Below are positions 407-22,578 of a DNA stretch of 64,000 nucleotides, in pieces. Numbering within the stretch: position 1 is the stretch's first letter; each line of letters begins with the position of its first letter. The notes below the pieces were generated by a model that saw only the letters and a list, made by a program, of their open reading frames with translations, made no database searches and was not told the DNA's origin. Source of the DNA: Archangium lipolyticum (GTDB lineage Bacteria; Myxococcota; Myxococcia; Myxococcales; Myxococcaceae); NCBI RefSeq assembly GCF_024623785.1, contig NZ_JANKBZ010000005.1, forward strand, positions 248,001 through 312,000, read 5' to 3'. A program made the position numbers and the translations under genes.

Positions 407-1615
407 TCACGGTGGAACTGTCCCGGCGGGTGGAGGGTTGAAGGGCAGGTCCACGCGCGCGAGCGTGCCTCCCCCGGGCGCGGGCTCCAGGCGCAGGGTG
501 CCTCCGTGCTCGTGGACGATCTTCTGGGCGATGGGGAGCCCCAGGCCGCTGCCGCCGGGCTTGGTGCTGAAGAGTCCCCGGGTGAGGGCGGGGCCCTCGA
601 GCACCTGCGGAATCCCGCCGCCGTGGTCGCGGATGGAGACACGCACGCAGGAGGGGAGCGCCTCGAGGGAGAGGTGCACGGGCGCGGCGCCGGAGGGTGA
701 GGCCTCGGTGGCGTTCTTGAGGAGGTTGCCGAAGAGGCGGCGCAGGCCGTCCGGATCCGCGGAGAGGGTGGGCTCCGGGCCGGGTTGGAGCTCCACGGGG
801 ACGGGAGAGGTCTCCTGGTAGAGGGCACACAGCTCGGCGAGCAGGGGACGCAGGGCGACGGGCTGGAAGCGCGGCGCGGGGAGACGGGCGAAATCCGAGA
901 AGCTCCGGGTCATCCGCATGAGCAGCTCCACCTCCTCCTGCAGGAGGGAGACGGACTCGGCGATGCGGGTGGCGTCCGGCGGCCCGTCCGCGCGGGAGAG
1001 CCGCGCCAGCGCGAGCTTCATGGCGGTGAGGGGATTGCGCAGCTCATGGGCCAGCGCACGGGCCACGTCCTGCCAGGCCGCTATCTGCTCGGCGGACTTG
1101 AGGCGCTCGCGCTGGGCGGCCAGCTCGCGGCCCATGCGGTTGAACTGGACGAGGAGGAACTGGAGCTCGTCCCGGGGCGAGTCGGGGGCGGGCAGTTGGA
1201 CGGAGAGGTCTCCGCGTGCGTAGGCCCACATGCCCCGGGTGAGGGTGGAGACGGGGCGGGTGAGGGCTCGGCCGAGCAGCACGGCGGCGGCGGTGAGCAC
1301 CGCGGCCGAGACGAGCAGCAGGGCCGCGATGAGCATGGGGGTGCGGCGGACGAGGGCGCGGCGGGCGAGCTCCGCCTGGGCGAGGTTGAGGCGGGCCTCG
1401 TCGAGCGCGGCCTGGGAGTGGCCCTCCCGGGCGAGCCCGGCGGAGAGCTCGTCGAGCACCTGCTCCACGGGCGCCAGGGACACGGAGAGCAGCTCCTGGA
1501 GCGCCTGCCGGGCGAGGAAGCCGAGCAGCACGAGCGGCACCAGCCCCGTGACGAGCATCACGGCGAGGAGCCGGCGGCGGAAGCGGGTGGGGGGCGGGGG
1601 CAGGTCGGGAGGCAT
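407..1615 (-). CDS. Membrane sensor histidine kinase (HAMP)
   Basis: A 402-residue sensor kinase. Transmembrane segments lie near residues 17-35 and 93-115, with a short extracytoplasmic loop between them. A HAMP linker (about 116-170) follows, then HisKA with the phosphoacceptor His190 in AHELRNPLTAMK. The ATPase domain has an N box (LFGNLLKNATEAS), a G1 box (DHGGGIPQV) and a G2 box (GSGLGLPIAQKIV). The ATG at 1615 places the proline-rich N-terminus just before TM1. A longer reading to 1726 would run into the divergent gene starting at 1696 and adds poorly organised residues. No response regulator is adjacent, so it is an orphan kinase. The HAMP plus NtrY-like kinase core suggests a partner of the NtrC type, which is inference. 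Confidence 0.85.
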   Translation of the reverse strand: MPPDLPPPPTRFRRRLLAVMLVTGLVPLVLLGFLARQALQELLSVSLAPVEQVLDELSAGLAREGHSQAALDEARLNLAQAELARRALVRRTPMLIAALLLVSAAVLTAAAVLLGRALTRPVSTLTRGMWAYARGDLSVQLPAPDSPRDELQFLLVQFNRMGRELAAQRERLKSAEQIAAWQDVARALAHELRNPLTAMKLALARLSRADGPPDATRIAESVSLLQEEVELLMRMTRSFSDFARLPAPRFQPVALRPLLAELCALYQETSPVPVELQPGPEPTLSADPDGLRRLFGNLLKNATEASPSGAAPVHLSLEALPSCVRVSIRDHGGGIPQVLEGPALTRGLFSTKPGGSGLGLPIAQKIVHEHGGTLRLEPAPGGGTLARVDLPFNPPPAGTVPP

Positions 1616-1695
1616 CGGCGGGGCGATGTTGGGGCCGCGCGCCGTCTCCTTCCAGCTTTGGAACGGGATCCAATGGGCTGATACCCTCCGGGGAG

Positions 1696-2844
1696 ATGTC
1701 CCGTCTTCTCGCTCCCTCCCAGGCATGGCTCTTCGGCCGAGGCGTGGACCTCGCCGTCTTCGCGGGCAGCGCGCTCGTCTCGGTGGCGCTCCTGCTCGCC
1801 GCGCCCGCGCTGGGCGCCGTGGGGGAGACGCCTCTCTGGGCCTGGGTGCTGCTCGTCGTCGGCGTCGACGTGGCCCACGTGTGGTCCACCCTGTTCCGCA
1901 CCTACCTCGATGGGGACGAGCTGCGGCTCCGGCCCGGCCTCTACGTCGCGGCCCCGCTCGTGGCGTACCTGCTGGGTGTCCTCGCGTACTCCATCTCCCC
2001 GGGCGTCTTCTGGAGTCTCTTCGCGTACACCGCGCTCTTCCACTTCGTCCGCCAGCAGTACGGCTGGGTGGCCCTCTACGATCGCAAGGCTCGTGTCTCC
2101 AGCACCGAGCGCGCCCTCGACGCCGCCGCCATCTACGCCGCCACCCTCGGCCCCGTCGTCTGGTGGCACGCCCACCTGCCTCGCGACTTCTGGTGGTTCG
2201 TGGAGAACGACTTCCTCTCTGGCCTCCCGGAGTGGGTGGGCACCGCGGCCCTCGCCGTCCACGGGCTCGTGCTCGTGGCGTGGGCGGGTTTCCAGGTGTC
2301 GCGCGTCGTGCGCGGCGAGGGGCTCCAGGCCGGCAAGGTGCTGCTCGTGCTCGCCACCTGGGTGACGTGGTTCGGTGGCATCGTGCTCGCCCGGGACGAC
2401 TTCGGCTTCACCGTGACGAACGTGTTGCTGCACGGCGTGCCCTACTTCGCGCTCCTCTTCCGCTACACGCGCGGGCGGCTCGCCGAGGGTGGCCAGGGGT
2501 GGCTCGGAACCGTGATGCGCGCGGGCCTGCCCGGCTTCCTCCTGGTGCTGTTCGCGCTCGCCCTGGGCGAGGAGCTCCTCTGGGACAGGCTCGTCTGGCA
2601 CGAGCGCCCCCTCCTCTTCGGCGAGAGCGGCGGGTGGGTGCTGCCCGCGGACGTGCTGACGCTCGTGGTCCCCCTGCTCGCTCTGCCCCAGGCCACGCAC
2701 TACCTGCTGGATGCGTTCATCTGGAAACCGAGCCGGGATTCGACGCTCCTCTCCCGGCTCGGGTGGACACGCCACGCCGGAGATGGTTCTCCACAAGGCA
2801 TCACCCTCGATTCAAGGGTGGTCATACCCGGAGTGCGTGATTAA
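1696..2844 (+). CDS. Polytopic membrane protein of unknown function
   Basis: A 382-residue integral membrane protein with about nine hydrophobic segments, starting at ATG 1696 and divergent from the kinase that starts at 1615. Polar or aromatic residues stand out inside the membrane regions: ALFHFVRQQYGWVALYD (about 115-131), DVAHVWSTLFRTYLD (about 59-73) and ALPQATHYLLDAFIWK near the C-terminus. Several His residues sit at equivalent membrane-edge positions, which could bind metal or haem, but I recognise no characterised family. The stop codon lies 13 nt before the trehalose synthase start on the same strand, so the two are probably co-transcribed. Function is unknown. Confidence 0.75.
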   Translation: MSRLLAPSQAWLFGRGVDLAVFAGSALVSVALLLAAPALGAVGETPLWAWVLLVVGVDVAHVWSTLFRTYLDGDELRLRPGLYVAAPLVAYLLGVLAYSISPGVFWSLFAYTALFHFVRQQYGWVALYDRKARVSSTERALDAAAIYAATLGPVVWWHAHLPRDFWWFVENDFLSGLPEWVGTAALAVHGLVLVAWAGFQVSRVVRGEGLQAGKVLLVLATWVTWFGGIVLARDDFGFTVTNVLLHGVPYFALLFRYTRGRLAEGGQGWLGTVMRAGLPGFLLVLFALALGEELLWDRLVWHERPLLFGESGGWVLPADVLTLVVPLLALPQATHYLLDAFIWKPSRDSTLLSRLGWTRHAGDGSPQGITLDSRVVIPGVRD

Positions 2845-16933: not shown

Positions 16934-17374
16934 ATGAGGGTGCGAGACGTGATGCTGCGAGATGTGGCCGTTGTCAGGCCAGAGACGAGCTTCCGCGAAG
17001 CGGTAGCGCGGATGAGGCAGTCCCGATGCCCTCTCGTCGTCGTGTGGGACGGGCACGCCATCCACGGCCTCGTGACGATGCGGGGGCTGGTGCTGGGCGC
17101 CGAGGCGTGGGCTCAGGGGTACCCCATCCAGGGCGTGGGGGACGTCGTGAGCCTCAACTTCATCTTCACCCACGAAGACGAGTCGGTGGCGGAACTGGCG
17201 CGGCGGATGGTTCACGGGGGAGCGCGGCGGGCCATCGTCGTCGACGGGGAGATGCGCGCGGTGGGCGTGGTCTCTCCCCGGGAGCTCGCGAAGCTCGATG
17301 CGGTCGGGCGGGCCTCCGAGGAGTCCTTCCCCGCCAGTGATGCCCCCGCCTGGACAGGCGCCACGGCGGGGTGA
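16934..17374 (+). CDS. CBS-domain pair protein
   Basis: A 146-residue protein made almost entirely of two CBS repeats: RVRDVMLRDVAVVRPETSFREAVARM at about 2-27 and GDVVSLNFIFTHEDESVAELARRM at about 68-91, each followed by a LVVVWDGHAIHGLVT-like strand-turn-strand unit. Such pairs bind adenine nucleotides and act as energy-state sensors. A poorly ordered tail of about 20 residues follows. The ribosome site GGAAAGGAGGCTGTC precedes ATG 16934. The next gene starts 55 nt downstream on the same strand, suggesting an operon with the HAD/ATPase-like protein and the permease. Confidence 0.85.
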   Translation: MRVRDVMLRDVAVVRPETSFREAVARMRQSRCPLVVVWDGHAIHGLVTMRGLVLGAEAWAQGYPIQGVGDVVSLNFIFTHEDESVAELARRMVHGGARRAIVVDGEMRAVGVVSPRELAKLDAVGRASEESFPASDAPAWTGATAG

Positions 17375-17429
17375 CGCGTGCCCCGAAGCGGCCGCTCTCC
17401 TACGTCCTTCACCTGAAACGGAGGTCCCC

Positions 17430-19121
17430 ATGCGTTACCTGGCTCTCGCCATGAGTCTGGATGGAACCCTGGCCGCCGCCGGCCATATCGAGGCGGCGCT
17501 CGAACAACTGCGGAGCTCGGGGCGACGCGCCCTCCTGGTGACCGCGCGACGGCTCGGGGAGCTGCCCGAGGTCTGCCCCCGCCTGGAGCTCTTCGATTGC
17601 GTCATCGCTGAGAATGGAGCCGTCCTGCACTGGCCGGCCCGCCGCGAGAGTCTGTCCCTGCGCGAGCCCGTTCCCGAGTCCTTCACGCGAGCCCTGCGCC
17701 AGCGCATCCCTTCCTCCGTCGAGCGGGGCCGGGTCGCCGTCTACACCCATGCGTCGCGGGCGTGTGCCCTCGTCGAGACGGTTCGCGAGCTCGGTCTCGA
17801 GCTGCAGATCTTCTTCTGTGGTGAGTCGGCGCTGGCCGTGCCTCCGGGCGTCAACAAGGGGGCGGGACTCCAGGAAGCGCTCCTGTCGCTCGGGCTGTCT
17901 CCACACGAGGTCGTCAGTATCGGCAGCGAGGCCAATGACCATTCGCTCCTGGAGATGAGCGAGTGCGCGGTGGCCGTGGCCGATGCGCTGCCCGCGCTCA
18001 AGGAGCGGGCTGCCTTCGTGACGAGAGGAAGGGCGGAGGCCGGGGTGGTCGAGCTCATCGAGGAGCTGGTGCGCGATGACCTCCAGGCGGCGAGGGGGTG
18101 GATTCCCCATGACGCGCTGCTGCTCGGCTTCGATGGGGCCGGAGACGCGGTGTGCGTTCCCGCCTATGGCGACAACGTCCTCGTCGCGGGGCCGCGGGGC
18201 GGCGGACGGTCGCGCTACGCCTTCGGGTTCCTCGAGCGCCTCATCCAGAAGAAGTACCAGCCTTGTGTCATCGACCCCGTGGGGGACTTCGAGCCGCGCG
18301 AGGACATGGTGAGGCTGGGGAGCCGGCTGCGTGCGCCTCGCGTGTCCGAGGTCATCGCCGCCCTGGCGGACCCCTCGGTGAAGCTCGTGGTCAACCTCGC
18401 GGGGCTGCGTCCCTACGAGCAGCCGGGTTTCAGCTCCGAGCTGTTCACGGCGCTGGCGCTGATGCGCAAGCGGACGGGGCGGCCGCACTGGATTGTCGTC
18501 CACGGAGCCCAGCACCTGTGGCCCGCCGGAGAGCGTGCCGAGGGGCTTCCCTCGAAGCTGGGAGAGACCCTTCTGGTGGTGGAGGACCCGGGGGAGGTGG
18601 CGCGTCCCCTTCTTCGGCAGGTGGATGTCGCCGTGGCGGTCGGGCCGGCTCCCACGCGGACCCTCGGGCAGTTGGCCGAGGCGCTCGACAAGACCACTCC
18701 CCACACCCGGCTCAGCACCGGCCAGGAAGATGAAGTGCTCGCCTGGTTCATCACCGAGGGGCGTTGGCCCCTGCGGCTGAGGGTTCCACCCGGGCGCGCG
18801 GAGCGTCTACGCCGGCTCCACGGACACGTGGAGGGAGACCTGGGCTCCGGGAGCTTCGTCTTCCATGGGCCGGAGGGGAGGCTCGACCTGCGGGCCCAGA
18901 ACCTGAGCAGCTTCTGCCAGATGGTGGAGGGAGTGGATGAGCGGACGTGGCTCTTCCACCTCTGGCACGGGGACTACTCGCGCTGGATCCGGCACGTCCT
19001 CCGGGACGACGAGCTGGCCCGGGAGATCTCCGCCATCGAACAGCGCTACGAGCTCCCCGCGGCGGACAGTCGCCGGCGGGTCCGTGGTGCCATCGCCCAC
19101 CGGTACGCGCTTCCCGCCTGA
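17430..19121 (+). CDS. HAD-like plus AAA/HerA-like fusion with degenerate active sites
   Basis: A 563-residue two-domain protein. Residues 1-215 follow the HAD-IIB (Cof-type) phosphatase fold and keep Thr38 (motif II), Lys143 (motif III) and Asp170. The nucleophile position of DxDGT is Ser9 (MSLDGTL), and the first acid of motif IV is Ser166 (GSEAND). Residues 225-563 resemble the HerA/DUF853-like ATPase that, as I recall, accompanies this HAD domain in other myxobacteria. Here the Walker A is GPRGGGRS (254-261), with Arg in place of the catalytic Lys, and the Walker B region is WIVVHGAQHLWP, without the usual Asp-Glu. Both domains therefore look catalytically impaired. Start ATG 17430 follows ACGGAGGTC. 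A regulatory or scaffold role is inferred. Confidence 0.75.
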   Translation: MRYLALAMSLDGTLAAAGHIEAALEQLRSSGRRALLVTARRLGELPEVCPRLELFDCVIAENGAVLHWPARRESLSLREPVPESFTRALRQRIPSSVERGRVAVYTHASRACALVETVRELGLELQIFFCGESALAVPPGVNKGAGLQEALLSLGLSPHEVVSIGSEANDHSLLEMSECAVAVADALPALKERAAFVTRGRAEAGVVELIEELVRDDLQAARGWIPHDALLLGFDGAGDAVCVPAYGDNVLVAGPRGGGRSRYAFGFLERLIQKKYQPCVIDPVGDFEPREDMVRLGSRLRAPRVSEVIAALADPSVKLVVNLAGLRPYEQPGFSSELFTALALMRKRTGRPHWIVVHGAQHLWPAGERAEGLPSKLGETLLVVEDPGEVARPLLRQVDVAVAVGPAPTRTLGQLAEALDKTTPHTRLSTGQEDEVLAWFITEGRWPLRLRVPPGRAERLRRLHGHVEGDLGSGSFVFHGPEGRLDLRAQNLSSFCQMVEGVDERTWLFHLWHGDYSRWIRHVLRDDELAREISAIEQRYELPAADSRRRVRGAIAHRYALPA

Positions 19122-19179: not shown

Positions 19180-20460
19180 ATGACTGGGATTGCACTCGTT
19201 CTGGCCATCGTGTTCATCGGAATCGTCCTCTTCTCCCTGGAGACGGTTCCCCTCGAGGTGACGGCGCTCGCCATCGTCTGCCTGCTCGCGCTGACGGGAG
19301 TCCTCACGCCGGCGGAGGCCTTCGCCGGGTTCTCCAACGAGACGGTCATCTTCATCTTCGCGCTCCTGGCGATGACGGAGGGGCTGTCGGCGACCGGGGT
19401 GATGCACAGGGCCGGGAGCTGGCTGGCCCGCTTCGGCCGGCGTGGCTCCCGGGGATTCCTCGTGGGGCTGATGCTGCTGGTGGCGGTGTTCTCGGCCTTC
19501 GTCCCCAACACGATCACCACGGCGGCCTTCCTCCCGGTGGCCCTCCGAGGCGCGAAGGCCGCTGGCCTGCGCAGGAGCCGGGTGCTCATGCCACTCGCCT
19601 TCGCCTCCATCCTGGGGGGAATGGGCTTCCTGTATGGGACCTCGACGAACCTGGTGGTCTCCGCGCGTCTCGATGACCTCGGGATGCGCCCCATCGGTCT
19701 GGTCGAGCTCACGCCGGTGGGGCTGCCCGTGGCGCTCCTGGGCATTGCGCTCCTCCTCCTCCTGACACCCGTGGTCCTGCCCACCCGGACGGGCGTCGGC
19801 GAGGAGGACGGGCGGGCGCGGGACTTCATCACCGAGACTCCGCGTCACTCCAAGGCGTTGCTCGCCATCTCCCTCTTCGCGGCCGCGCTCGTCCTCGGCT
19901 CGGTGGGACTGGTGCCCCTGTCGGTCGCGGGCATGGCGGGCGTCCTCCTCATGGTCCTCACCGGCTGTCTGGACCCGAGGCGTGCGTTCCGCATCGACTG
20001 GCGGGTGGTGCTGTTGATCGGCTCGATGATGGCGCTCGGTCTCGCCATGGAGAAGAGCGGGGCGGGGCGGTTCCTCGGAAGCTTCGCGGCCGAGGTCGCC
20101 GGCGTGGGTGGCCCGCGCCTGGTGCTGCTCTGCCTCATGGTGCTGACCGTCGTGCTCTCCATTCCGATGAGCAACCAGGCCGCAGCGCTCGTGGTGTTGC
20201 CCATCGGGTTGAGCGCCGCCGCGGGCCTGGGCGTCAATCCCCGCACGTTCGCCATGGGGATTGCGCTCGCCGCCTCATGCTCGTTCATCACCCCGCTCGA
20301 GCCGAGCTGTCTGCTGGTGTACGGCCCCGGGCGCTACCGCTTCAGTGACTTCTTCCGTCTCGGAGGGCCTCTCACCGTGTTGGTGCTCGCCGTGCTTCTC
20401 GTGCTCGTCCCCTGGGCCTGGCCGATGGAGGCGCACGGCCTGTCCGGCGGGGCGGGGTAG
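19180..20460 (+). CDS. SLC13/ArsB-NhaD superfamily permease
   Basis: A 426-residue polytopic inner-membrane transporter of the ion transporter superfamily (SLC13/DASS-like anion permease). Two inverted halves are visible. The first has SNETVIFIFALLAM, the helix-break motif VPNTITTAAFLPV (about 104-116) and GGMGFLYGTSTNLVVS. The second has SIPMSNQAAALVVLPIGLS and CSFITPLEPSCLLVYGPG. Paired Pro/Ser-Asn-Thr-like hairpins bind the carboxylate or inorganic anion and Na+ in this family. The substrate cannot be read from sequence. Start ATG 19180 has GGGAG upstream and lies 58 nt after the HAD/ATPase-like gene, probably in the same transcript. Confidence 0.83.
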   Translation: MTGIALVLAIVFIGIVLFSLETVPLEVTALAIVCLLALTGVLTPAEAFAGFSNETVIFIFALLAMTEGLSATGVMHRAGSWLARFGRRGSRGFLVGLMLLVAVFSAFVPNTITTAAFLPVALRGAKAAGLRRSRVLMPLAFASILGGMGFLYGTSTNLVVSARLDDLGMRPIGLVELTPVGLPVALLGIALLLLLTPVVLPTRTGVGEEDGRARDFITETPRHSKALLAISLFAAALVLGSVGLVPLSVAGMAGVLLMVLTGCLDPRRAFRIDWRVVLLIGSMMALGLAMEKSGAGRFLGSFAAEVAGVGGPRLVLLCLMVLTVVLSIPMSNQAAALVVLPIGLSAAAGLGVNPRTFAMGIALAASCSFITPLEPSCLLVYGPGRYRFSDFFRLGGPLTVLVLAVLLVLVPWAWPMEAHGLSGGAG

Positions 20461-20476
20461 GGCACGGCGGCACCCA

Positions 20477-21598
20477 TCAGGTGCCGACGAGCCGGAAGTC
20501 GGATGCCTGTTCGAGCTGGTGGACACGGGGTCCTCGACGGAGGACACCCTTGACGGTCACGTAACGCTGTTCGAGGTGGGCCGCGGTCGCCTGCCGGTAA
20601 TCGGTGGCGCCCAGTGTGACTCGGACCTTCAGCAGCTCATCCTCCACCTGGGCCTGGAGGACGACGGCTCCTTCGACTTCACCGTACTCACCTGGCTCCC
20701 CCATCAACTCCACCACCCTGCCGACGAACTGGTTGGGCTGTGCTCCACGGGAGGGCCGGAGCTGGTGGGCCATCTTCTCGATGGCCTCGTACATGTTCCG
20801 ATCCACATGGACCTCGGAGGGCACCTCTGGCTCGACGGGGAGCAGGGGGGACCAGGAGCTGCGCAGTCGTAGGTCAGCGCTCTCATCGCGCGGCATCATC
20901 TCGACGAGCGCCTCGCAGAGGTTGGCGCTCACCACGGGCTCGCCACTGGCGGGCTCGAGGACCCTCTCGGGCGCGCCCGCTCGAACGGCCGCGGCCACGT
21001 GTGCCACCGAGCGCAGGAGCAGCAGGGAGGCGCGCCTTCCGAAGGACTCTTCCCGTGCCGACCGTTGCGGCGTCACATCGAGCGGTGCTTCCACCGTCAG
21101 GACGAAGCTCCCCAGTTCCGTCTGCCCGAGGCGGCATTCCTGGAGGAACGCATCTGCCTCCGCCAGGGTCATTCGTGGGTGGAAGGTCGTTCCCGGACGC
21201 TTGATGCTGCAGGCGCTGGCGAGCAGGGCCTTGCGCACGCCATTCACCAGGTCCAGCCCATTGCCCAGACGGATGCCTCCATCTCGCGTCTCCTCGCCTT
21301 CCAGGGCGAAGCGGATCAGGTCCCACCTGGGCCGCAGCAGGTCTCGCAGGAGCGACTCCATGGAGCGCTGCTCGTATTCGGCGACGCGTCGCGCGACCTC
21401 CACCATCGCTTCGCCATAATCGATGAGGTCGCGATCCAGGGGGACCTGGACCTCCGCGACGGGCGCCTGGCCGATGCGATAGATGGCCGCTTGGAGACGG
21501 CGCGACGGGATGCGGTTCCATCCGCGTGCTTCCAGATAGGCGCGCACGTTCTGGTAGTCGACCCGGTTTCCGAGCGCGAGGAGTTGCTCCGCGTTCAT
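20477..21598 (-). CDS. Unknown protein, partner of the DUF4365 gene
   Basis: A 373-residue soluble protein with no signal peptide or membrane segment and no family I recognise. It has a helical N-terminal region (residues 1-100, including VARRVAEYEQRSMESLLRDLLRP) and a mixed middle with Arg-rich helices. The C-terminal 85 residues (about 288-373) are beta-rich and resemble an OB- or SH3-like nucleic-acid or ligand-binding barrel (FVGRVVELMGEPGEYGEVEG...VTVKGVLRRG). Its ATG overlaps the stop of the DUF4365 gene in an ATGA arrangement, so translation is coupled and the two proteins probably act together. It is last in the proA-rsfS-rlmH run. A nuclease-associated recognition or immunity function is speculation. 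Confidence 0.75.
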   Translation of the reverse strand: MNAEQLLALGNRVDYQNVRAYLEARGWNRIPSRRLQAAIYRIGQAPVAEVQVPLDRDLIDYGEAMVEVARRVAEYEQRSMESLLRDLLRPRWDLIRFALEGEETRDGGIRLGNGLDLVNGVRKALLASACSIKRPGTTFHPRMTLAEADAFLQECRLGQTELGSFVLTVEAPLDVTPQRSAREESFGRRASLLLLRSVAHVAAAVRAGAPERVLEPASGEPVVSANLCEALVEMMPRDESADLRLRSSWSPLLPVEPEVPSEVHVDRNMYEAIEKMAHQLRPSRGAQPNQFVGRVVELMGEPGEYGEVEGAVVLQAQVEDELLKVRVTLGATDYRQATAAHLEQRYVTVKGVLRRGPRVHQLEQASDFRLVGT

Positions 21599-22107
21599 GG
21601 TGCGAGCTCCTCTTCACGGGACACCTTGCGCAACAGGTCGCGCAGGGTGTCGTGGTCGAAGGTCTGCCTGCGTGACAGGCGGACCGTCTGGCTCGTTTCG
21701 TTGGTCGTGGCTGGCAAGCCTCGAAGCGAGAGCCAGTAGGCACATCGCCGCAAGGTGAGCGCCTCCTCGGTGAGGGTCAGCCACTGCCCCTCGTCCCCTG
21801 GCATGACGAACACGACGAGGATGCGTGGAACGAGCGACGGGGCGATGAGATCGTCGTAGTTCTTCCGGGAGAGCTCGAAGGAGAAGGCCCTCTCGGGAAG
21901 TGGGTCGAGCACCGTGGCCTTGAGCTGGATGGCCAGCTCGGGCGAGGTCAGGACCGCATCTTCCGTCAGCAGTCCGCGTGCGCGGACCTTGAGGTCCACG
22001 CTGTCTCGGTCCTTGCGTACCTCCTCGACCGAGAATCCGGCCCGCGAGGCGATGGCGCGAACGTACGTGAGGCTCAACTCCTCCTTGATATCGTCGGGGC
22101 TCAGCAT
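21595..22107 (-). CDS. DUF4365 domain protein (PD-(D/E)xK-like)
   Basis: A 170-residue protein of the DUF4365 type. After an N-terminal helix (DDIKEELSLTYVRAIASRAG) come VDLKVRARG (Asp38) and ELAIQLKAT (Gln61-x-Lys63), which together form the D...QxK signature of a PD-(D/E)xK nuclease fold. The C-terminal half is a strand-helix core (LVPRILVVFVMP) plus a helical tail. DUF4365 proteins are widespread, often near mobile or defence genes, and mostly uncharacterised. The ATG lies 6 nt after the rlmH stop with no ribosome site of its own, so expression should follow rlmH. The coupled downstream gene is its likely functional partner. Confidence 0.75.
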   Translation of the reverse strand: MLSPDDIKEELSLTYVRAIASRAGFSVEEVRKDRDSVDLKVRARGLLTEDAVLTSPELAIQLKATVLDPLPERAFSFELSRKNYDDLIAPSLVPRILVVFVMPGDEGQWLTLTEEALTLRRCAYWLSLRGLPATTNETSQTVRLSRRQTFDHDTLRDLLRKVSREEELAP

Positions 22108-22113
22108 GGCCGG

Positions 22114-22578
22114 CTACTTGTGGTACGGCTCACCCTTGAGGATGGTGAAGGCGCGGTAGAGCTGCTCTACCAGCACGACCCGTGCCAGCCGGTGCGGCAG
22201 CGTCATCTTCGACAGCGAGAGCACCAGGTCCGCGGACTGTCTCACCCGCTCGTCCAGGCCCTCGTCACCGCCGATGATGAGCAGCAGGTCCTTCGCTCCA
22301 TCCTGCGCGCGGCCCACGTAGCGGCTGAACTCCACCGAGTCCAACAGCTTGCCCCGCTCGTCGAGCGCCACCAGCAGATCCTGCGGCTTGCGGCGCGAGA
22401 GGATGGCCTCGGCCTCCTGGGCCTTGGCGTCCCCCGCCTTCCCCTTCTTCCCACCCGCCTCGGGCAACTCAATCAGCTCGAAGCGGGTGTAGTGGGTCAG
22501 GCGCGAGGCGTACTCCTGGACCGCGGGCTCATAGAGGCCCGAGCGGTCCTTGCCTATCGAGAGGAGCCGGACCTTCAG
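22114..22578 (-). CDS. rlmH: 23S rRNA pseudouridine-1915 N3-methyltransferase RlmH
   Basis: A 154-residue SPOUT methyltransferase that methylates pseudouridine 1915 of 23S rRNA using SAM. The C-terminal knot carries [44 protein letters not shown] and the terminal GEPYHK. The N-terminal [22 protein letters not shown] is in frame only from CTG 22578-22576. No ATG, GTG or TTG exists close upstream, and the next downstream candidate (TTG 22467) would remove 37 conserved residues. With CTG the length equals the usual 155-residue family size, and GGAGAAGG lies just upstream. The CTG overlaps the rsfS stop as CTGA, implying translational coupling. Confidence 0.9.

What the first reader, a model, noticed from the sequence alone, without database searches (positions are those of the whole stretch)
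20477..22107. DUF4365 nuclease-like protein translationally coupled to an unknown 373-residue partner
The DUF4365 gene shows Asp38 and Gln61-x-Lys63, fitting a PD-(D/E)xK core. It overlaps its partner by ATGA. The partner has a helical N-terminal half and an OB-like C-terminal end and matches no family I know. Tight two-gene units with a nuclease-fold member are the usual form of uncharacterised defence modules.
Basis: partly seen in the sequence, partly recalled or inferred. Interest (0 to 1): 0.65.

Follow-up and report, generated by a model that had tools for sequence, protein, structure and literature searches.

The report
Two-gene nuclease and partner defence candidate
Two tightly coupled bacterial genes encode a likely DNA-cutting enzyme and a partner protein whose end resembles DNA-binding proteins; they turn up in very different bacteria, are present in some close relatives and missing in others, and in some cases sit inside a known anti-phage (restriction) operon, so they are probably an untested self-defence module.

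Summary
Window 21595-22107 (-) encodes a DUF4365 protein and 20477-21598 (-) its 373-aa partner, overlapping by ATGA. Both match an existing, functionally untested PADLOC candidate, PDC-M02A/B. The DUF4365 model resembles the DREN nuclease of SPARDA; D38, Q61 and K63 are invariant in all 68 aligned rows. The partner ends in an OB fold like those of SSB, PriB and SilF; its other ~280 residues have no Pfam family above cut-off. The pair is dispensable: a relative with 95-97% identical flanks has an empty site, and 2 of 6 genus genomes carry it after rlmH; relatives occur in many phyla, with a four-base overlap in 47 of 64 distinct pairs. In 10 of 75 relatives hsdR follows directly, but the window's genome shows no HSDR_N match, so this copy probably acts alone. 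In four family genomes the nuclease is lost or gutted while partner sequence stays open, with low dN/dS. Most likely a latent DNA nuclease controlled by a sensor partner; anti-phage activity is untested.

The parts
21595..22107 (-). DUF4365 (DREN-type) predicted PD-(D/E)xK nuclease, 170 aa; PADLOC PDC-M02A
   Evidence: PF14280 E 7.9e-21; PDLC04278 E 2.2e-56; AF2 model pLDDT 94.0 with SPARDA DREN chains as best structural matches
21994..21996 (-). codon of Asp38, predicted metal ligand
   Evidence: invariant in 68 of 68 rows; corresponds by motif to D41 of NbaSPARDA DREN (PMC12205087, passages)
21919..21927 (-). codons of Gln61-Leu62-Lys63, the Q-x-K catalytic motif
   Evidence: Q61 and K63 invariant in 68 of 68 rows; corresponds by motif to Q60/K62 of NbaSPARDA and Q62/K64 of TmuRE
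21595..21598 (-). ATGA overlap of stop and start codons (translational coupling inferred)
   Evidence: sequence; same kind of 4-bp overlap in 47 of 64 distinct pairs
20477..21598 (-). partner protein, 373 aa; PADLOC PDC-M02B
   Evidence: PDLC04323 E 4.2e-164; 88 of 88 aligned members, window included, match PDC-M02B models; AF2 pLDDT 93.4, pTM 0.79
21284..21598 (-). partner N-terminal part, residues 1-105 (kept in the natural short forms)
   Evidence: model elements and short-form boundaries
20753..21283 (-). partner middle part, residues 106-282, with invariant N226 and A230; removed in the short forms
20480..20752 (-). partner C-terminal OB domain, residues 283-373
   Evidence: e.g. 8bbz SilF Z 10.1, rmsd 2.3, 74 aligned; 4dam_F SSB Z 9.1, rmsd 3.2, 87 aligned
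22114..22467 (-). rlmH (23S rRNA methyltransferase) ORF as called; its stop lies 6 bases upstream of the DUF4365 start, so the pair is probably read with the rsfS-rlmH run (inference)
   Evidence: PF02590 E 4e-39; coordinates
20456..22107 (.). presence/absence segment: about 1.65 kb here, about 15 bp in genome G005 of the same genus

Best explanation
The two genes are a stand-alone copy of the PDC-M02 module. The first makes a DREN-type metal-dependent nuclease that is expected to be latent on its own. The second, made in matched amounts by translational coupling, binds and controls it: the middle part is the likely docking surface and the OB domain (perhaps with the N-terminal part) the sensor, most plausibly of single-stranded DNA or replication intermediates of invading DNA. 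Sensing would let nucleases assemble and cut DNA, stopping the invader or the infected cell. Shown here: gene pair, overlap, nuclease fold and conserved active site, OB domain, patchy presence and loss, restriction-operon embedding in relatives. Inferred: coupling, complex formation, what is sensed, activation, DNA as target, and protection against phages or plasmids.
For: Family: PDC-M02A/B. Nuclease: PF14280; best structural matches are SPARDA DREN chains, 9qcc_M Z 13.6, rmsd 3.2, 138 aligned, then Hjc resolvases and I-Ssp6803I; D38, Q61, K63 invariant in 68 of 68 rows. Published DUF4365 domains cut DNA non-specifically once activated (PMC10810196; PMC12205087); the NbaSPARDA DREN domain alone had undetectable activity and is activated by tetramerisation; a DUF4365 toxin kills E. 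coli and loses this when three of its four conserved D/D/Q/K residues are mutated singly (PMC11297309). Pairing: 13 of 14 near full-length DUF4365 copies in 96 family genomes have a full-length partner beside them; distances covary and the 4-bp overlap is common. Mobility: the tree mixes phyla, 8 plasmid records, PHROG families for both genes, empty site. Defence link: hsdR directly downstream in 10 of 75, hsdS upstream in 11 of 78. The window's genome has no HSDR_N match at E 1e-10, so this copy probably works without a type I enzyme.
Against: No anti-phage, nuclease or toxicity data for this pair in anything I could read. In the window the neighbours are housekeeping and transport genes. For loci outside restriction operons the survey of neighbours was inconclusive. 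The two best structural matches of the OB domain are SilF, a metal-binding protein, not SSB, and Z 8-10 is modest; an OB fold does not prove ssDNA binding. Persistence of partner parts after nuclease loss would also fit a toxin-antitoxin pair. The DUF4365 gene of G003, the only other rlmH-linked copy, has a frameshift near residue 133, in a draft genome. No complex was modelled.
Confidence: 0.55

Rival explanations
1. Toxin-antitoxin type pair: DUF4365 is a toxin whose action is simply neutralised by the partner; protection, if any, comes from the antitoxin being inactivated during infection. The nuclease-less short forms would be orphan antitoxins.
For: Four-base overlap; nuclease lost or gutted while partner sequence persists in four genomes at two loci (G055, G064, G063; G005), with pairwise dN/dS 0.14-0.28 for the persisting parts, against one genome (G035) with the reverse; DUF4365 toxicity known for an injected toxin (PMC11297309).
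Against: The partner is twice the toxin's size, with an OB domain and a conserved middle part, more than an antitoxin usually needs (general knowledge); the toxin gene comes first; the NbaSPARDA DREN domain alone had no detectable activity, so the nuclease may not need neutralising.
Confidence: 0.25
2. PrrC-like guard of a type I restriction enzyme: the nuclease is held silent by HsdM/S/R and released when a phage disables restriction. The window copy would be a remnant or act in trans.
For: Nine loci have the order hsdS - DUF4365 - partner - hsdR on one strand (about seven lineages: L045/L046 and L103/L120 are near copies), an embedded position like that of prrC in the EcoprrI operon (PMC3874165; PMC2610378); the label 'next to a type I gene' needs 12 changes on the tree, at least 11 forced; the nearest relatives outside the window's family by tree path, L045 and L046, are of this kind.
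Against: No HSDR_N match at E 1e-10 in the window's genome or in G003; in the family, genomes with a full-length partner have hsdR no more often (4 of 13) than the rest (29 of 83), Fisher p 1.0; 16 of 80 loci were labelled as next to a type I gene, the others not, though some of those have short flanks.
Confidence: 0.12
3. Restriction-type system in which the partner reads a DNA sequence or modification and directs DUF4365 to cut it.
For: Nuclease fold shared with restriction enzymes and resolvases; frequent company of type I enzymes.
Against: No modification enzyme belongs to the pair in the window; among 88 partner members only weak hits to DNA-binding domains appear in Pfam (RHH_1 best E 0.0028 in 2, GMT-wHTH 0.0037 in 1).
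Confidence: 0.1
4. A housekeeping DNA-repair or rRNA-linked function tied to rlmH.
For: It follows rlmH by 6 bases here and also sits after rlmH in G003; Hjc-like fold.
Against: Absent after rlmH in 4 of 6 genus genomes, with a clean empty site in the closest; other copies lie elsewhere; 13 of 96 family genomes carry a full-length partner.
Confidence: 0.03

Closest known systems
PDC-M02 (PADLOC-DB 2.0.0 phage defence candidate)
   Same: Both proteins match its A and B models over nearly their full length, in adjacent genes
   Different: No difference in kind found; the window copy stands beside rlmH rather than in a restriction operon. PDCs are described as coming from guilt-by-embedding and as mostly unvalidated (PMC12988326, PMC10855318; passages)
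SPARDA (short Argonaute with DREN/DUF4365-APAZ)
   Same: Same nuclease domain and D-Q-K active site
   Different: No APAZ extension on the nuclease and no Argonaute hit in the partner, which has an OB domain
PrrC / EcoprrI
   Same: In the embedded relatives, a nuclease gene inside a type I restriction operon
   Different: Different nuclease family, two genes instead of one, and the window copy is not embedded
EAT16, DUF4365 toxin of a contractile injection system
   Same: DUF4365 nuclease-like toxin; three of four conserved residues needed for killing E. coli (PMC11297309, passages)
   Different: A predicted injected effector, two-domain protein; its pairing with a PDC-M02B partner was not examined

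Membership tests
PDC-M02 (PADLOC candidate) | first protein matches PDC-M02A | tested here: met
   PDLC04278 E 2.2e-56, residues 1-166
PDC-M02 (PADLOC candidate) | second protein matches PDC-M02B | tested here: met
   PDLC04323 E 4.2e-164, residues 1-371 of 373
PDC-M02 (PADLOC candidate) | the two genes are adjacent on one strand | tested here: met
   4-bp overlap
PDC-M02 (PADLOC candidate) | protects against phage | not testable with these tools
   no experiment; 'PDC-M02' in 0 papers of the library
DUF4365 / DREN nuclease | Pfam PF14280 above cut-off | tested here: met
   75 bits, cut-off 24.3
DUF4365 / DREN nuclease | catalytic D ... Q-x-K conserved | tested here: met
   D38, Q61, K63 invariant in 68 of 68 rows: window, 66 other loci picked for near full length, one of them (L015 = L072) twice
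DUF4365 / DREN nuclease | PD-(D/E)xK fold like solved DREN domains | tested here: met
   9qcc_M Z 13.6, rmsd 3.2, 138 aligned; Foldseek E 3.1e-8
DUF4365 / DREN nuclease | nuclease activity | not testable with these tools
   needs purified protein
SPARDA | APAZ domain fused to the nuclease | tested here: not met
   the protein ends at residue 170 and the aligned nuclease fold spans 1-166
SPARDA | short Argonaute partner | tested here: not met
   no Argonaute family among the 22 Pfam families hit by any of 88 partner members at E 0.1; the fold comparison itself does not exclude it
PrrC-type restriction guard | gene embedded in a type I restriction operon | tested here: not met
   window neighbours are rlmH and a CitMHS transporter; met on both sides in 9 of the 80 relatives' loci
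PrrC-type restriction guard | type I enzyme present in the same genome | tested here: not met
   0 HSDR_N matches at E 1e-10 in G000, a 75-contig assembly listed as 100% complete
Toxin-antitoxin pair | first protein toxic alone, neutralised by second | not testable with these tools
   needs expression test
Housekeeping neighbour of rlmH | fixed presence next to rlmH in relatives | tested here: not met
   2 of 6 genus genomes; empty site

The most novel reading that the evidence does not exclude
The partner has a job of its own. At one locus in three species of the window's family, the nuclease and the partner's middle part have been removed while the N-terminal part and the OB domain were joined in frame into a 191-200 residue protein that stays open, keeps the old overlap or start region, and shows low dN/dS. 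These would be nuclease-free derivatives, either orphan antitoxins/immunity proteins against PDC-M02 nucleases or repurposed DNA-binding proteins, and they would assign nuclease docking to the middle part and sensing to N-part plus OB.
Probability: 0.35. Interest if true: 0.62.

Novelty: new member of a known kind. Interest (0 to 1): 0.45.

Why it matters
It turns a computational candidate into concrete hypotheses: a DREN nuclease of the kind that arms SPARDA, run by a partner with no Argonaute signature and an OB domain, found alone as well as inside type I restriction operons. If true, the same nuclease type serves at least two unrelated sensors, and the natural nuclease-free derivatives give ready-made constructs for separating docking, sensing and neutralisation.

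Tried and rejected
DUF6575 link: the partner model matched a phage DUF6575 protein in BFVD (Foldseek E 1e-6, TM 0.34, rmsd 14.5), and DUF6575 is named in a paper of validated E. coli systems (PMC9519451, passages and one section). Profile comparison with the one DUF6575 locus found in 20 genomes searched gave nothing (probability 0.4%), and no partner member hit PF20215. Left as an unproven lead.

RHH_1 hit at residues 263-285 (E 0.0028, below its cut-off), seen in 2 of 88 members: taken as chance.

Solved-structure search by sequence: the partner profile hit only a designed helical bundle (E 0.001) and a thymidylate synthase (E 0.52): rejected. The DUF4365 profile hit 9qbp, a SPARDA DUF4365 protein, only at E 0.32, though with the catalytic columns aligned.

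Defence genes beside pairs outside restriction operons: inconclusive. I left out 16 loci next to type I genes and 6 further near copies, leaving 58; the nearest neighbour of 100 aa or more on each side gave 105 proteins, the sixth neighbour 74. The output tallies models, not proteins, and shows 25 of 123 model families for the near set and 25 of 34 for the far set. Down to E 1e-60, where both lists are complete, the near set shows about 8-10 kinds (PDC-M23B, GajB, REase_III, HmaA, MTase_I, MTase_II, SoFic, DruM, RTasHel, IetA; some may be one protein) and the far set 4 (JetA, RT_UG39, AbiEi, DrmC). The larger number of models near the pair leans towards enrichment, but models are redundant and proteins cannot be counted. 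A Pfam scan of the near set shows mostly unrelated metabolic families among the 25 of 63 listed.

Link to type I restriction across the family: none (4 of 13 against 29 of 83).

Phage records: no match to the partner in 50,697 records at E 0.01, although both proteins hit PHROG families, BFVD holds a Leptospira phage LE1 relative, and three IMG/VR contigs matched, one of them with DUF4365 upstream.

Full report
1. What is there. The minus strand carries, right after rlmH (6 bases apart), a 170-aa DUF4365 gene (22107-21595) and a 373-aa gene (21598-20477) that overlap by ATGA. The next gene is a convergent CitMHS transporter ending at 20460. Upstream on the same strand come rlmH, rsfS and an ORF that I take for proA from recall, since no family search was run on it, so the pair is probably transcribed with housekeeping genes (inference).

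2. Identity. Pfam calls the first protein DUF4365 (E 7.9e-21) and gives nothing above cut-off for the second; NCBIfam gives one match below cut-off and none. PADLOC-DB matches them to PDC-M02A (2.2e-56) and PDC-M02B (4.2e-164), and all 88 aligned partner members, window included, match PDC-M02B models. Papers that used PADLOC describe PDCs as candidates from guilt-by-embedding, mostly unvalidated (PMC12988326 and PMC10855318, passages). The source cited in PMC12988326, a 2024 preprint by Payne and co-workers, is not held and I did not read it. 'PDC-M02' occurs in 0 papers of the library; 7 papers hold 'PDC-M0', 'PDC-M1' or 'PDC-M2'. In four of these I read the PDC-M0 passages, and of the M0 numbers only M01 and M05 are named; two are haematology papers by title and one (PMC13356809) was not opened. 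Supplements were not searched.

3. The nuclease. In an alignment of 68 rows (window plus 66 loci picked for near full length, one of them twice) D33, D38, Q61, K63 and W109 are invariant. The model (pLDDT 94.0) matches SPARDA DREN nucleases best: the top 12 Foldseek rows are SPARDA chains, and so are the top six structural alignments (Z 11.3-13.6, rmsd 3.2-3.8, 133-141 aligned), followed by Hjc resolvases. In NbaSPARDA the catalytic residues are D41, Q60, K62; the DREN domain alone had undetectable activity and is activated by tetramerisation (PMC12205087, passages). In TmuRE Q62/K64 are the predicted active residues and the complex degrades DNA non-specifically (PMC10810196, passages). A DUF4365 toxin, EAT16, kills E. 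coli, and three of four conserved residues were needed (PMC11297309, passages). DUF4365 was assigned earlier to the RecB-like Mrr group of PD-(D/E)xK nucleases (PMC6299218, passages).

4. The partner. The model is confident (pLDDT 93.4, pTM 0.79). Residues 283-373 form an OB domain. Of 50 listed structural alignments 28 have Z 8.0-10.1 (74-90 residues aligned): the best two are SilF, a metal-binding protein, the rest of these SSB and PriB proteins and further SilF. Foldseek gives E 0.007 at best and nothing under 0.001, so this is a fold match only. Viral predicted structures include a full-length match from Leptospira phage LE1 (E 1.9e-23, TM 0.62). No member gives a clear Pfam domain; two hit an OB family weakly (best E 0.02). 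W27, N226, A230 and A340 are invariant in 88; I see no catalytic motif, so a regulator is more likely than an enzyme (inference).

5. Pairing. Two have no room upstream; of the other 78, DUF4365 lies directly upstream on the same strand intact in 56, split or partial in 17, absent in 5. That set was chosen by partner score and includes draft metagenome contigs, so the broken share is not an unbiased estimate. Junctions could be measured in 65 pairs from the 80 loci plus 10 of the window's family (64 distinct, L015 = L072): the start overlaps the stop by four bases in 48 (47 distinct) and by one base in 4; in the other 13 a start lies within 60 bases. Protein distances covary (rho 0.689, 0 of 2000 permutations). 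In the 96 family genomes, 13 of 14 near full-length DUF4365 copies have a full-length partner beside them; the exception, G035, has only the partner's N-terminal part. Two further DUF4365 hits are remnants: G005 (section 8) and a 44-residue piece in G054.

6. Distribution and mobility. In the window's genus the pair follows rlmH in 2 of 6 genomes (own and G003); in G001, G002 and G004 an RtcB-like ORF follows rlmH, in G005 the transporter (the RtcB name is recalled). G005 has the same flanks at 97.3% (2393 bp) and 95.0% (656 bp) with about 15 bp in place of 1.65 kb. Because the window and G003 share the position and their partners are 81% identical, old presence with repeated loss is more likely than two insertions (inference). 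In G003 the DUF4365 frame shifts near residue 133, after the active site; that genome is a 430-contig draft, so an error is possible. The own genome holds a second, divergent pair on C16. Partner matches: 15 of 96 family genomes, 13 with a full-length copy; 16 of 195 in the phylum sample, all in the window's family; 8 plasmid records of 72,556; 0 phage records. The partner tree mixes phyla.

7. Restriction operons. Three gene clusters recur beside the pair: hsdM, hsdS and hsdR, confirmed by Pfam on representatives. hsdR follows the partner directly on the same strand in 10 of 75 loci with 400 bases or more downstream; hsdS ends within 1.75 kb upstream in 11 of 78; nine have both (L045, L046, L066, L073, L076, L090, L103, L120, L122; in L103 and L120 hsdS ends about 1.1 kb before DUF4365; hsdR is in pieces in L066 and L073; L045/L046 and L103/L120 are near copies). 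With 49 HSDR_N hits at E 1e-5 in 20 host genomes that I chose, about 2.5 per genome, and some 5000 genes per genome (assumed), about 0.04 such neighbours would be expected. The label 'next to a type I gene' needs 12 changes on the tree, at least 11 forced by starred branches (15 labelled rows; 34 of 500 shuffles as low, so it is only weakly clustered). The position resembles that of prrC embedded in the EcoprrI operon (PMC3874165 and PMC2610378, passages). But the window's genome and G003 have no HSDR_N match at E 1e-10, and in the family full-length partner carriers have hsdR in 4 of 13 against 29 of 83. The embedding is recurrent but not required. Whether other defence genes are enriched beside non-embedded pairs could not be settled (see Tried and rejected).

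8. Losing the nuclease. At one locus, intact in G079 and marked by an alpha/beta-hydrolase-like neighbour (recalled name), G055 and G064 keep only 33 codons of DUF4365, still overlapping by four bases a 200-aa partner made of its N-terminal part and OB domain; in G063 what looks like the old DUF4365 start region is fused onto a 191-aa version. dN/dS between G055 and G064 is 0.183 over 200 codons with 39 differences (OB part 0.043, only 9 differences), like the neighbouring hydrolase (0.152); for G063 against G055, G064 and G079 it is 0.26-0.28. G064 also has an intact divergent pair elsewhere. At the second locus G005 has lost about 235 bp of DUF4365, including the equivalents of Q61 and K63, while its partner stays open (dN/dS 0.18, 0.15 and 0.27 against three intact relatives). 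The reverse case is one: G035 keeps the nuclease residues and a partner N-terminal part fused to a Fis-like helix-turn-helix (recalled name). So nuclease loss with partner sequence kept is seen in four genomes at two loci, at most three events, the reverse in one. The deletions in G055/G064 and G063 may not be independent, these are pairwise estimates, and in G005 the loss may be too recent for selection to show.

9. Reading. The evidence fits a mobile effector-plus-regulator module with a DREN nuclease. Defence is the likeliest role (association, patchy presence, known behaviour of the nuclease family); its trigger and target are inferred. The PrrC-like guard reading is unlikely for the window copy because its genome shows no type I HsdR. 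A toxin-antitoxin reading stays open and is tested by the same experiments.

Noticed in passing
G055 (L010:1216-1818), G064 (L011:1216-1818), G063 (L017:1477-2052): Short nuclease-free partner derivatives (N-terminal part plus OB domain), open and with low dN/dS, at the same locus where G079 has an intact pair.
   Followed up: partly
G035, L038 around 902-1956 (+): Intact DUF4365 followed by a partner N-terminal part fused in frame to what looks like a Fis-type helix-turn-helix (name recalled).
   Followed up: no
G000:C16:41225-42807 (L002): Second, divergent copy of the pair in the window's genome (31% and 41% identity), with close relatives in G001, G002 and G005; in G005 the nuclease of this copy is gutted.
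   Followed up: partly
L104, L111, L113, L115, L112, L117, L123: Several related metagenome loci have an intact partner with split, partial or missing DUF4365; could be decay or draft-sequence frameshifts.
   Followed up: partly
BFVD A0A482MK90 (Nodularia phage vB_NspS-kac65v162): A 101-aa phage protein predicted to match the partner's OB domain closely (89 columns, rmsd 1.6, TM 0.79 by its own length); might be an OB-only relative or mimic.
   Followed up: no
window 17298-19121 (+): 607-aa ORF that, by eye, looks like a HAD-type phosphatase joined to an ATPase-like part, an unusual combination; not searched.
   Followed up: no
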